63,023 nucleotides of DNA from the NCBI GenBank assembly GCA_018700525.1, contig JABITN010000062.1:1-63023 (forward strand), given 5' to 3'. The notes under the pieces are model-generated. The model did not search any database. It worked only from the letters and a program-made list of their open reading frames with translations, and was not told the origin of the DNA. A program made the position numbers and the translations under genes. Below are positions 20,286-24,465 of this stretch, piece after piece. Every line of letters begins with the position of its first letter. Position 1 is the first letter of the stretch. This DNA comes from Opitutales bacterium. Lineage in GTDB: Bacteria; Verrucomicrobiota; Verrucomicrobiia; Opitutales; Opitutaceae.

Positions 20286-20627
20286 ATGGACCCGAAAATC
20301 TATCAATTCCTCCACGTTATTTCGATAATCCTCCTGTCAGGTTTCACATTCGCTATTGCGGCGAACCCGCAAAAGCACAAGAAAAAGCTTATGTCGGTTG
20401 TCACCGGCATTCTGGGTCTCGTCGCTCTGGTTGCGGGCGCTGGATTGATGTCGAAGTTGCATAATAACGATTGGGCTCAAGGCTGGGTTGTTGCAAAAAT
20501 GGCTTGTTGGCTGGTCGTAATGGGCTTGGGCGGAATGGCTTACAAGAAATCGAAGTCGTTTATTTTCACTGTGCTGATTGCTGCTGTAGGAATTGCGGTG
20601 TTCATGGTTTATTTTCGGCCTTTCTGA
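20286..20627 (+). CDS. SirB-like small membrane protein
   Basis: The ATG at 20286 gives a 113-residue protein with four transmembrane helices ('IYQFLHVISIILLSGFTFAI', 'GILGLVALVAGAGLM', 'GWVVAKMACWLVVMGLGGM', 'FIFTVLIAAVGIAVFMVYF'). The helix layout with an early His in helix 1 resembles the SirB/DUF420-type integral membrane proteins; the assignment is tentative. A longer frame from 20103 has no membrane features at its start and is not favoured. The TGA stop overlaps the ATG of the DNA polymerase gene by one base (TGATG), so the two are coupled, though a functional link is not obvious. Confidence 0.7.
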   Translation: MDPKIYQFLHVISIILLSGFTFAIAANPQKHKKKLMSVVTGILGLVALVAGAGLMSKLHNNDWAQGWVVAKMACWLVVMGLGGMAYKKSKSFIFTVLIAAVGIAVFMVYFRPF

Positions 20628-22825
20628 TGACCGAAAGTAGAGCTAGCCCTTCGCTTTGCGGAATTTGGATAAATCCTAAAGGGCAGGCTTTTCAGGCTTG
20701 GGAAGATGGAGAAGGGGCTCGTCGGGTTGAGGTTCTACCATTTTCCCCTTTTGTGTGGGCGAAGGATAGCTTGACCTATGGGGAACCCGAGAATGCGTCT
20801 GTCACGCAACTTTCGGGGTACGCGCCGTTTAACCGATTGATTCATTTTGACGAGGTAGATGCGCATTCGGCCTTCGTCAAAGAACACGGGCGTCATGGGT
20901 CAATCGATTGGATACGGCAGCTCGAACAGCAGTATTTACTTTCTAATGCATCACGTTTGTACGCGGATATGCCTTATTCGAAGCTTCGACGCATGCAGCT
21001 CGATATCGAAACGGCTTGTTCGGTGCCGGGCGGGTTTAGCGATTCGAAGCGTCCGGAGGATCGCGTGTTGGCGATTGGCATTCAATGCGGGGACAAGGTA
21101 GAGACTTTGACCTTAGCTGAGAGGACGGATGAAGCAGAGCGGAAGTTGTTGGAGCAGCTGAATGTTCGTTTCGAGGAATGGGATCCGGATACGGTTGAAG
21201 GTCATAACATTTTCAAATTCGATTTGGAGTATCTGCGTCGTAGGGCGAAGCGTTTGAAGGTTCCGGTGGCGTGGGGTCGCTTTGGACAGGTAGCGAAATT
21301 TCGGAACAGCCGGTTGAGAGTGGCGGAGCGCTGGATTGATTACACGCGCTGCGATATCCCTGGTCGCGCGGTTGTGGATACGTATTTGCTGATTCAGATC
21401 TACGATATCACGACTCGCGAACTCATGTCGTACGGGCTGAAGGATGTCGCTCGTTATATGGGCGTGACGCCAGCGGACGGCGGGGATCGCGTTTATATCG
21501 AAGGATCGAAGATTCAATACATGTTCGATGATGACCGTAAGCGTTTTCTCGGATATCTTCGAGATGATCTTCGAGAAACTGCGGGGGTTGCGGATCAATT
21601 ATTACCGACTTATTTCGAGCAGACGAAAGCGTTTCCGACTACGCTCCAAGAAGCTTGTCTACGCGGGACGGCAGGCAAGGTAGATCTCGTTTTTCAGGAA
21701 AAGTATTATCACTTGAAATCGTCTTGTCCGATGCCGGGCGAAGTTCGCTCTTTTGCAGGAGGCTACACGGCGAGCTTTAAGGAAGGCGTTTTCAAGAATG
21801 TGCTTCATTTCGATGTGGCATCGCTTTATCCGAGTTTGCTGTTGATGATCGGGCGGAACCCGAAGAAGGATACCGAAGGCGTATTTATTCCGATGTTGGA
21901 ACAACTTAGGGAGTATCGATTTAAGTTCAAGAAACTAGCTCGAGAAACGGATGATCCTGTATTGGCATCCGAATACAATGCTCGTCAGACCAGTTTCAAG
22001 ATTCTCATCAATTCTTTCTATGGCTATTTGGGCTTTGCGGGCGCTCGGTTTGGCGATTCGGAACTAGCTGCTGAAACAACAGCGAAAGGGCGCGAAATTT
22101 TGAAGTCGCTGATTTCGTTTTTCGATGAAGAAGGTTGTGAGCCGTTAGAAGCGGACACGGATGGAATCTACGTATCTGCTCACGGGTATTTCGATGATGC
22201 GGAATCATTACTTGCCAAGGCTCAGCGCATATTGCCCGAAGGAATTGAGTTGGAGTACGATGGGCGCTACGAAACGATGTTCTGCTACAAGGCCAAAAAC
22301 TATGCTTTGTACGATGGCGGAAAAGTTGTGATACGCGGATCGGCAATGCGATCCCGTGGTATTGAGCCGTTTCTAAAGGAACTCACGCAAACCTTGATCC
22401 ATTTTCTATTGGGGGCTTCTAAAGAAGATCCAAATGCTGCGGCTCGGGAAATCGAGTCGAAGATTAAGGCTGGCGAATTCGATGTGCGCCGATTAGCAAA
22501 ATCCGAAATTCTTAGTCAGAACCCGGAAGCTTACCGCAAGAAAATCGAGACTGGCGGAAAGCCGCGACGCGCTTCGGCGGAAGTGGCATTGATGTTGGGA
22601 GATCAGGCTCGAATGGGCGATCGGATATCGTATTTTATATCGCCTAAGGAAAAAGGAAAGACCGCGGATTGGCAGCGAGCGCTACCTGTGGAGCGATTTG
22701 ACAAGGAGCGTTTGCCTTATGATCCGAGCTATTATGTTAAGAAGTTAAATGATTGGCGAAAGCGTTACGCGCCGTTCTCTCCTGAGCTTGCGGAAGATCC
22801 TGACCAAGGAACGTTGTTTGGCTAG
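20627..22825 (+). CDS. polB: Family B DNA polymerase (Pol II-like)
   Basis: This 732-residue DNA-dependent DNA polymerase has a 3'-5' exonuclease domain. The start ATG at 20627 overlaps the previous stop. Exonuclease motifs 'MQLDIETAC' and 'VEGHNIFKFDL' come first; polymerase motif A is 'HFDVASLYPSLL', motif B 'FKILINSFYGYLG' and motif C 'EADTDGIYV', all with their catalytic Asp residues intact. It is somewhat shorter than E. coli Pol II. Such enzymes act in repair or damage bypass. The 3' end overlaps the convergent oxidoreductase-methyltransferase gene by 4 bp. Confidence 0.93.
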   Translation: MTESRASPSLCGIWINPKGQAFQAWEDGEGARRVEVLPFSPFVWAKDSLTYGEPENASVTQLSGYAPFNRLIHFDEVDAHSAFVKEHGRHGSIDWIRQLEQQYLLSNASRLYADMPYSKLRRMQLDIETACSVPGGFSDSKRPEDRVLAIGIQCGDKVETLTLAERTDEAERKLLEQLNVRFEEWDPDTVEGHNIFKFDLEYLRRRAKRLKVPVAWGRFGQVAKFRNSRLRVAERWIDYTRCDIPGRAVVDTYLLIQIYDITTRELMSYGLKDVARYMGVTPADGGDRVYIEGSKIQYMFDDDRKRFLGYLRDDLRETAGVADQLLPTYFEQTKAFPTTLQEACLRGTAGKVDLVFQEKYYHLKSSCPMPGEVRSFAGGYTASFKEGVFKNVLHFDVASLYPSLLLMIGRNPKKDTEGVFIPMLEQLREYRFKFKKLARETDDPVLASEYNARQTSFKILINSFYGYLGFAGARFGDSELAAETTAKGREILKSLISFFDEEGCEPLEADTDGIYVSAHGYFDDAESLLAKAQRILPEGIELEYDGRYETMFCYKAKNYALYDGGKVVIRGSAMRSRGIEPFLKELTQTLIHFLLGASKEDPNAAAREIESKIKAGEFDVRRLAKSEILSQNPEAYRKKIETGGKPRRASAEVALMLGDQARMGDRISYFISPKEKGKTADWQRALPVERFDKERLPYDPSYYVKKLNDWRKRYAPFSPELAEDPDQGTLFG

Positions 22826-24465
22826 CGTTTGAAAATGAAAATCGGGTATGGAGATCGAGCGATACCCGTGGGGTGGCGTTCTATTTCGTGTCTGTAAAGT
22901 GTTGGGTCGAGTTTTTGGATCCATTTTAGAATGTCGGCGGTTTCGCTGTTTCCGCCTTCGTGTCCTGGATAAAGGACTACGCTTAGGATTCCATCAGGCC
23001 TTAGCCGGTCGAGACATTGATTAAGCGCGTCGATTGTCGTTTCGGGGCGAGTTATGAGGGATTGATCCCCTCCGGGGAGATAGCCTAGGTTGAATACTGC
23101 AGCAGCGATTGCCCTATCTTCAGGTAGGCGTTTTGAGAGGTTGGAATGAGAGTCGGCAATGAAATGAATAGGCGAGCTGCAGTTGGCCTCTTGTATTCGC
23201 TGTCGGGCGTTTTTAATTGCTTCTGTTTGTACGTCGAATGCAAATACGCACCCGTTTTCGCCGGTTCGCTGAGCGAGCCAGAGGGTGTCATGGCCATTGC
23301 CGGCAGTAGCGTCGATTGCTGAGTCGCCTGGTTTTAGAATTTTCAGTACACGTTCTTGAGCGATTCTGACTGCAATCCAGCGTTTTGGGGCTGCTTGAGT
23401 GGATTTAATGAATCTTGAAGGAAGGACGTCTGGGTGAAGGGTCTTGTCATTCCAAATGAAATCGTGAAGCGTTTGGGCGAAGTAGGGCGTTTGGTTGGCT
23501 CCTTTGCTGCCGAATCCGTTGAATGATAGGATGCGTGGGTTCTCGGGGGATGGTCCTACGACCGGTTTCGCTCCGGCTGTGGCCGGGCGAATGCCGGCTC
23601 CGATGGACGACCATTTCCAGCGGTCGCCAAGCATGCGTTCGAGAAAAGCTTCGAGTTCGGCTATTCCTTTGGGATCGGCTATTTCGTCGATCTGGTCCCA
23701 ATTATAAGTAGCCCCTACGCTGATCGTTTGATCGTGTCGCGGCAGTAGGAAGTACTTTTTGATGATGGCCGTATCTCCTAATTGAATATCGGAATCGATG
23801 GTTCCTATAATCCCTTTTGCAGGTTTATAGGGGACGAAGGAAAACCATGGGTTGGTGGTTGCTAGATGCCCTTCGCAAAATATTGCGTAGTGAGCGGATC
23901 GATTTTTCCAGGTTACTTGGCCCTGGGTGGCTTCGATTTCGGCGTACTCGAATTCAGATTCTATAAGGGCTTCTTGCGAAGCAAGCGTAGATCGGATAGC
24001 GTTAACGAGATTGGGTATATCGAGGTAACCAGAGCCGTTGACGGCGAATCCCTCTTCGTTGGAGATGTCGATCTCCTGGGGTACTTTCAAGGAAGCGAGA
24101 GGAGCTGACCACGGTTGGTACTTGGCTTGATCTTTCCGTTTTTGCCATTGTTTTCGTTCGTCCGGACTGGCAAACAAGCGAGCAATTGAGCGAGGGTGAT
24201 AAAACTGAACCTGATGGCTCTCTTCAAGCGATCGGTAGAAATTCGTCGCGAATGGAATGAGCGTATTGGCTTTCCAAATGAGGTTGAGTCTGCGGCCACC
24301 GATGGGATTGATCAATCCGGCGGCGACCTGGGAGCATCGCGATTTTCCTGGAAAATCGATGACGAGAGGACGTTTACCTTGTTGTGAAAAGGTGTGGGCA
24401 AGGACGGAACCGGCGAGTCCGCCACCGAAAATGAAGCAATCGTATTTGCGAGCTGTGCTTGCCAT
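22822..24465 (-). CDS. Fusion: MnmC-type FAD oxidoreductase + MnmM-type tRNA methyltransferase
   Basis: This is a 547-residue two-domain protein with an ATG start at 24463-24465. Residues 1-355 are a DAO/ThiO-family FAD oxidoreductase ('FIFGGGLAGSVLA' dinucleotide motif, 'QVAAGLINPIGGRRLNLIW', 'GAGIRPATAGAKPVVGPSPE'). Residues 362-547 are an MnmM (formerly YtqB, rRNA_methylase family) SAM methyltransferase with 'IDATAGNGHDTLWLA' (385-394 core), 'VFNLGYLPGGD' and 'VVLYPGHEGG'. In MnmC the order is methyltransferase then oxidoreductase. The inferred role is cmnm5(s2)U34 to nm5(s2)U34, then methylation to mnm5(s2)U34, in tRNA wobble position 34. queG, another position-34 enzyme, lies 600 bp away on the other strand. 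Domain calls are solid; the reaction is inferred. Confidence 0.85.
   Translation of the reverse strand: MASTARKYDCFIFGGGLAGSVLAHTFSQQGKRPLVIDFPGKSRCSQVAAGLINPIGGRRLNLIWKANTLIPFATNFYRSLEESHQVQFYHPRSIARLFASPDERKQWQKRKDQAKYQPWSAPLASLKVPQEIDISNEEGFAVNGSGYLDIPNLVNAIRSTLASQEALIESEFEYAEIEATQGQVTWKNRSAHYAIFCEGHLATTNPWFSFVPYKPAKGIIGTIDSDIQLGDTAIIKKYFLLPRHDQTISVGATYNWDQIDEIADPKGIAELEAFLERMLGDRWKWSSIGAGIRPATAGAKPVVGPSPENPRILSFNGFGSKGANQTPYFAQTLHDFIWNDKTLHPDVLPSRFIKSTQAAPKRWIAVRIAQERVLKILKPGDSAIDATAGNGHDTLWLAQRTGENGCVFAFDVQTEAIKNARQRIQEANCSSPIHFIADSHSNLSKRLPEDRAIAAAVFNLGYLPGGDQSLITRPETTIDALNQCLDRLRPDGILSVVLYPGHEGGNSETADILKWIQKLDPTLYRHEIERHPTGIARSPYPIFIFKR

What the first reader, a model, noticed from the sequence alone, without database searches (positions are those of the whole stretch)
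22822..24465. Single-chain FAD oxidoreductase plus MnmM-type methyltransferase: an MnmC analogue built from different parts
Seen: residues 1-355 are a DAO-family FAD oxidoreductase and 362-547 an MnmM/YtqB methyltransferase (DATAGNGHDT, NLGYLPGGD). Known: MnmC of gammaproteobacteria carries an unrelated methyltransferase at the N-terminus and a DAO-type oxidoreductase at the C-terminus, and turns cmnm5U34 into mnm5U34; in Gram-positive bacteria separate DAO and MnmM proteins do the two steps. Inference: this protein is a convergent bifunctional enzyme with the order reversed and a non-homologous methyltransferase. queG, another wobble-base enzyme, is 600 bp away. I cannot tell whether such fusions are already catalogued.
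Basis: partly seen in the sequence, partly recalled or inferred. Interest (0 to 1): 0.75.

Follow-up and report, generated by a model that had tools for sequence, protein, structure and literature searches.

The report
Fused FAD oxidase–MnmM tRNA methyltransferase
One bacterial gene joins an amine-oxidising enzyme to a tRNA methyltransferase, and it probably carries out the last two steps in making a modified letter of the tRNA anticodon, a job that other bacteria do with differently built enzymes.

Summary
The 547-aa ORF at 22822-24465(-) is a FAD oxidoreductase (DAO, residues 8-332) fused to MnmM (366-546, above NCBIfam's equivalog cut-off). It is no artefact: 26 of 252 family genomes carry the fusion, in 8 genera. 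A second fusion, in another family, nests among unfused neighbours, so fusion (or splitting) happened at least twice.

In 288 genomes of the phylum, all 46 with MnmM also have the DAO; in 12 of the 44 unfused ones it lies directly upstream of mnmM. The host has mnmE and mnmG, but no MnmC2, MnmC1 or MnmL above cut-off. Catalytic residues are mostly kept.

Best reading: a bifunctional cmnm5U34 to nm5U34 to mnm5U34 enzyme, working like MnmC. Activity is inferred, not shown.

Corrections: the oxidase half is homologous to MnmC1; only methyltransferase family and order differ. In two Bacilli records mnmM follows a TIGR01212 (MnmL, radical-SAM) gene, not a DAO. Trees cannot say whether the DAO is nearer MnmC1 or ThiO. 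New variant of a known kind.

The parts
22822..24465 (-). DAO-MnmM fusion gene, 547 aa, ATG start, stop included
   Evidence: fusion found in 26 of 252 family genomes
23470..24444 (-). DAO-family FAD oxidoreductase domain, residues 8-332
24409..24429 (-). FAD dinucleotide-binding glycine motif, residues 13-19; G14, G16, A18 and G19 invariant
   Evidence: alignment A1 of 25 fusions; G14 and G16 align with E. coli MnmC G271 and G273
23587..23589 (-). Arg293, aligned with E. coli MnmC Arg567, invariant in the 25 fusions
23371..23409 (-). interdomain linker, residues 353-365; pLDDT below 50 at 356-359
22828..23370 (-). MnmM methyltransferase domain, residues 366-546
   Evidence: NF053511 189.8 bits; TM-score (by target) 0.86-0.93 to the YtqB/MnmM-family chains listed
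23284..23313 (-). SAM-site motif DATAGNGHDT, residues 385-394; D393 aligns with B. subtilis MnmM D34
   Evidence: PMC9976899
23065..23091 (-). NLGYLPGGD, residues 459-467; N459 and Y462 align with B. subtilis N101 and Y104
   Evidence: PMC9976899
22960..22971 (-). YPGH, residues 499-502; Y499 and H502 align with B. subtilis Y141 and H144
   Evidence: PMC9976899

Best explanation
The gene encodes a bifunctional tRNA wobble-uridine enzyme. MnmE and MnmG first install cmnm5 (or nm5) on U34. The N-terminal FAD domain oxidises the glycine-derived amine of cmnm5U34 to an imine that hydrolyses to nm5U34 and glyoxylate. The C-terminal MnmM domain then transfers the methyl group of SAM to nm5U34, giving mnm5U34. 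It arose by joining two neighbouring genes, dao and mnmM, that already worked in the same pathway. Shown here: the architecture, its conservation, the residues, the co-occurrence and adjacency, and mnmE/mnmG with no other MnmC2, MnmC1 or MnmL above cut-off. Inferred: both activities, the order of reactions, the tRNA set, and that the untethered DAO of relatives does the same step.
Against: No activity is shown. B. subtilis K110, whose K110E mutant is inactive, is Q468 here, and by ungapped extension K11 falls on Q370. Trees do not decide between MnmC1 and ThiO as nearest kin of the DAO (p-AU 0.437); of 5 MnmC1-versus-ThiO diagnostic positions the window has 2 MnmC1-like and 1 ThiO-like, and unfused DAOs beside mnmM have more ThiO-like than MnmC1-like cells there (27 against 19 of 60). 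Six of 16 DAO-only genomes have no MnmM and no PF05430, nor an NF033855 match; one of them (G146) is cut at a contig end. The most distant fusion, G296, has lost the N101, Y104, Y141 and H144 equivalents and scores below the MnmM cut-off. Four MnmM genomes have both DAO and MnmL, so the DAO may be redundant there. In most unfused MnmM genomes (32 of 44) the two genes are not adjacent. Co-occurrence statistics ignore shared ancestry.
Confidence: 0.8

Rival explanations
1. The oxidase half is a glycine oxidase (ThiO-like) or other free amino-acid oxidase, fused to MnmM by chance of gene order and unrelated to tRNA.
Against: ThiO score far below its cut-off of 250.8. The three reference thiO genes lie beside thiS and a thiazole synthase gene, whereas this gene lies beside polB, aroK and queG. 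46 of 46 co-occurrence with MnmM, repeated adjacency and two fusions.
Confidence: 0.07
2. Both halves act on tRNA, but not as successive steps: MnmM methylates nm5U made by the ammonium route of MnmEG, and the DAO acts on another modification or only on a subset of tRNAs.
For: DAO occurs without any recognised partner methyltransferase in 6 of 16 DAO-only genomes; all six were searched again with NF033855 without a match. MnmEG can make nm5U directly (PMC9976899 introduction).
Against: The DAO mostly goes with mnm5 methyltransferase families: MnmM in 46 genomes, a free-standing PF05430 protein in 6, and a long-frame PF05430 protein in 4, of which the one checked (G160) is Tgt-fused.
Confidence: 0.1
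3. Artefact of assembly or gene calling.
For: Window genome is in 268 contigs.
Against: Same fusion in 26 genomes of 8 genera, three of them one-contig genomes; no frame break in the window; purifying selection on both halves.
Confidence: 0.01

Closest known systems
MnmC of gammaproteobacteria (bifunctional MnmC2-MnmC1)
   Same: One chain with a DAO-fold FAD oxidase and a SAM methyltransferase; predicted same two reactions; the nine conserved positions checked in the FAD half are shared
   Different: Order reversed (oxidase first); methyltransferase is MnmM (PF06962) rather than MnmC2 (PF05430); oxidase half lies in its own clade and scores 52 bits against a 174 cut-off
MnmM/YtqB of Bacillus subtilis and Staphylococcus aureus
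   Same: C-terminal half is an MnmM equivalog with TM-scores of 0.86-0.93 to solved family members
   Different: Free-standing in Bacilli, next to a TIGR01212 (MnmL) gene in the two annotated records examined; here fused to a FAD oxidase
MnmL/YtqA (TIGR01212, radical SAM)
   Same: Held to fill the same step before MnmM (PMC12548931 table passage; Jaroch et al. 2024 recalled, not read)
   Different: Unrelated enzyme class; no match over cut-off in this genome
ThiO / glycine oxidase
   Same: Same fold and highest curated score for the oxidase half
   Different: Far below the ThiO cut-off; no thiamin genes beside it; partner is a tRNA methyltransferase

Membership tests
MnmM (NF053511 / PF06962) | Score above the curated equivalog cut-off | tested here: met
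   189.8 bits, cut-off 135
MnmM (NF053511 / PF06962) | Residues needed for activity in B. subtilis: D34, N101, Y104, Y141, H144 | tested here: met
   D393, N459, Y462, Y499, H502 (residues from PMC9976899)
MnmM (NF053511 / PF06962) | K110 (tRNA backbone contact; K110E inactive in B. subtilis) | tested here: not met
   Q468; it is also H in the C. thermocellum homologue 3eey, so not a strict family mark
MnmM (NF053511 / PF06962) | K11 (U33 contact; K11E inactive in B. subtilis) | tested here: inconclusive
   lies before the aligned stretch of 8h0s; ungapped extension puts it on Q370, where most other fusions have R
MnmM (NF053511 / PF06962) | Methylates nm5(s2)U34 | not testable with these tools
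   needs an assay
MnmC (bifunctional) | MnmC2 methyltransferase (PF05430 / NF033855) | tested here: not met
   no PF05430 match in the protein and no PF05430 or NF033855 match in its genome
MnmC (bifunctional) | MnmC1 domain above TIGR03197 cut-off | tested here: not met
   52.2 bits, cut-off 174.2
MnmC (bifunctional) | MnmC1-conserved residues of the FAD half | tested here: met
   9 of 9 positions examined are identical; 7 of them are also kept in all three ThiO references
MnmC (bifunctional) | cmnm5U to mnm5U in one polypeptide | not testable with these tools
   needs an assay
ThiO | Score above TIGR02352 cut-off | tested here: not met
   72.2 bits, cut-off 250.8
ThiO | Phylogenetic grouping with ThiO | tested here: inconclusive
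   not in the best tree, but not rejected (p-AU 0.437)

The most novel reading that the evidence does not exclude
The DAO family here is a further kind of MnmC(o)-type wobble-uridine oxidase, distinct from the MnmC1 clade and from radical-SAM MnmL. It is the missing partner of MnmM throughout much of this phylum, and was welded to MnmM into an MnmC-like enzyme at least twice independently.
Probability: 0.6. Interest if true: 0.65.

Novelty: new variant of a known kind. Interest (0 to 1): 0.55.

Why it matters
When MnmM was described in 2023 its discoverers wrote that the MnmC(o)-like enzyme of MnmM-bearing organisms was unknown, and that they had expected, and not found, a fused oxidase-methyltransferase in their three-species Gram-positive comparison (PMC9976899). 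The radical-SAM MnmL has since been named for Gram-positives (cited in PMC12548931; original not read). In this phylum 42 of 46 sampled MnmM genomes have no MnmL above cut-off, and all 46 have this DAO, so the fusion acts as a Rosetta stone that makes a specific, cheap test possible. It also suggests that the last two steps of mnm5U are put together from interchangeable parts: MnmC2-MnmC1, MnmL-MnmC2, DAO-MnmM and perhaps Tgt-MnmC2-like chains all occur in one phylum.

Tried and rejected
Chance or assembly artefact: rejected. G066 as a further fusion (the search reported one 662-aa frame): rejected, since a single in-frame stop separates the two ORFs; the same holds for G690 and G739. A single origin for all fusions: rejected on the DAO tree (p-AU 3.9e-47), not rejected on the shorter MnmM tree (p-AU 0.0755). 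For the 26 fusions of the own family alone a single origin is not rejected (p-AU 0.152), although three of them (G472, G405, G296) fall outside the main clade on the MnmM tree, and with more rows the MnmM half of G405 grouped with that of unfused G772 (98/95); so there may be more than two fusion events. Using queG as supporting evidence: weak, because it is divergent and the aroK-queG-polB block is simply syntenic around the fusion (aroK in 20, queG in 19, polB in 15 of the 24 family fusion loci compared, G466 left out; most loci have only 1.5 kb flanks). Diagnostic positions MnmC1 versus ThiO: only 5, inconclusive. L044 as a ThiO reference: dropped, since its plasmid relatives are annotated mainly as D-amino acid dehydrogenases or FAD oxidoreductases; it was kept as a DadA-like row, and three annotated plasmid ThiO genes were used instead. 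The DAO half found nothing in plasmids at E 1e-5. Literature: no paper in the held library was seen to describe this fusion (listings). The most relevant paper, Jaroch et al. 2024 (J Bacteriol), is not held; from memory its abstract mentions 'fusion proteins', so this or a similar fusion may already be listed there. Rows dropped: the DAO tree left out halves of 290 aa or less (L148, L081) and L078; the MnmM tree left out L007 (136 aa); later trees were thinned (SolA and most fusions; most fusions, 13 named rows, all but 3 references; most fusions, L168, one reference). The listing is capped, so weaker matches were not seen. The VIA listing did not test the MnmM half.
Full report

Is it real? 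Of 252 genomes held for the family, 26 carry the fusion, in 8 genera, at 27-74% identity to the window; one of the 26 (G466) is open only from residue 94 on. Ten of the 11 genomes listed for the own genus have it. One of them (G468) carries the same stretch as the record named Opitutaceae bacterium isolate ANT-100 (L002), so the host belongs with that Verrucomicrobiota family. Three fusions lie in one-contig genomes (G223, G471, G296). Both halves show dN/dS near 0.15 between the window and L002.

Origin. In 288 genomes sampled from the phylum, 62 have a DAO match, 46 an MnmM match, and all 46 MnmM genomes have the DAO (E up to 1e-5). Two of the 46 are fusions; in 12 of the other 44 the DAO lies directly upstream of mnmM on the same strand, in four families, and in 32 it does not. 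In a class-wide sample of 384 genomes, three more fusions appear in one genus of another family (G706, G745, G764), together with further adjacent pairs, of which 9 were fetched and read. On the DAO tree these three nest among unfused neighbours G690 and G667 with support 99/95 and 100/97, and holding all fusions together is rejected (p-AU 3.9e-47). The MnmM tree gives the same nesting (98/84), but its single-clade test is not significant (p-AU 0.0755). So fusion, or fusion and later splitting, happened at least twice. Fisher's p for co-occurrence (5e-40) ignores shared ancestry and is only descriptive.

Partners. The own genome has mnmE (352 bits) and mnmG (741 bits) side by side on contig 59. 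It has no PF05430 or NF033855 match and no TIGR01212 match above cut-off (best E 4.6e-6); the fusion is the only match that spans more than the first 44 positions of the MnmC1 model and the only ThiO-like match at E up to 1e-6. Of the 46 MnmM genomes only 4 (G039, G128, G172, G228) have MnmL above cut-off. Among the 16 DAO-only genomes, 10 have a PF05430 protein: six genomes of one family with a free-standing one, and four (G085, G088, G160, G260) with a long frame; of these G160 was checked and is Tgt joined to a PF05430 domain. The remaining six (G091, G146, G169, G181, G193, G271) have none, which speaks against a strict link, although G146's gene is cut by a contig end.

Residues. In the MnmM half, D34, N101, Y104, Y141 and H144 of B. 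subtilis correspond to D393, N459, Y462, Y499 and H502; K110 is replaced by Q468, and K11 falls on Q370 by ungapped extension. K11E, D34A, N101A, N101D, Y104A, K110E, Y141F and H144A were inactive or nearly so in B. subtilis, and Y104F was about three-fold less active (PMC9976899 section 21). Seven of the 25 aligned fusions have F at the Y104 position, two have R at the H144 position (G471, G405), and the outlier G296 has lost most of these residues. In the DAO half the nine E. coli MnmC positions examined are identical; eight come from Table 2 of PMC3648344 (passages) and Ser304 from its section 9. Seven of the nine are kept in all three ThiO references too, so they argue for a working FAD site rather than for the substrate.

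Kinship of the DAO. In a 91-row tree the family that accompanies MnmM is one clade (100/99), with the fusions of the own family a sub-clade (87/89); ThiO, DadA and SolA are split from MnmC1 plus this family at 97/91. In a thinned 74-row quick tree without the long SolA branch the support is SH-aLRT 81, and grouping with ThiO is not rejected (p-AU 0.437). I therefore claim a distinct clade, not descent from MnmC1.

How it most likely works. After MnmEG makes cmnm5U34, the FAD domain oxidises the carboxymethylamino group, releasing glyoxylate and leaving nm5U34; MnmM methylates it to mnm5U34. This follows the MnmC scheme (PMC3648344, passages) and the shown activity of MnmM (PMC9976899: abstract, sections 4, 15, 20, 21, 22 and passages); neither reaction was tested for this protein. 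MnmM crystals are dimers in which the partner chain touches U35 (PMC9976899, section 20), so the fusion may dimerise through its C-terminal half, unlike E. coli MnmC, which appears to be a monomer in solution (PMC3648344, passages). That is a guess.

Known or new. Enzymes with these two activities in one chain are known (MnmC), and MnmM is known. The 2023 MnmM paper looked for an oxidase-methyltransferase fusion in its Gram-positive comparison and found none. Jaroch et al. 2024, cited for MnmL in PMC12548931, is not held; I recall that its abstract speaks of fusion proteins, so this one may be catalogued. Within the held library, the listings of searches showed no description. I file it as a new variant of a known kind: it works like MnmC, but is not a member of the MnmC family by its defining methyltransferase or by the MnmC1 cut-off.

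Noticed in passing
L125 1-1998(+), L126 2764-4500(-), L129 2844-4499(-), L135 1-1944(+): Other genomes of the phylum, three of these four from the window's own family, carry Tgt (tRNA-guanine transglycosylase) followed in the same chain by a PF05430 or MnmC2-like methyltransferase (NF033855 73-82 bits in L125 and L135, cut-off 136). A possible link between Q34 and mnm5U34 modification.
   Followed up: partly
L040 73-1977(+), L043 247-1977(+); same frames: In many genomes of the phylum outside the window's class, MnmL (TIGR01212, radical SAM) is fused to MnmC2 (PF05430) in chains of about 600 aa.
   Followed up: partly
window genome G000: No MnmA (TIGR00420) above cut-off was found in the 96.5% complete genome (best 24.9 bits), so its wobble uridine may lack the 2-thio group, or the gene is in the missing part.
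   Followed up: no
20471-22825 (+): A bacterial family-B DNA polymerase gene (PF00136, PF03104) whose 3' end overlaps the end of the fusion gene by 4 bases; the pair is syntenic in relatives.
   Followed up: no
L183 3920-4306(+): A Neisseria gonorrhoeae record (chromosome-sized, listed as plasmid) has an MnmM-like open frame of 129 aa, shorter than the tblastn match; an MnmM homologue in a betaproteobacterium.
   Followed up: no
G091, G169, G181, G271: Genomes rated 98-100% complete with the DAO but no recognisable mnm5 methyltransferase; their end product or DAO function is unexplained.
   Followed up: no
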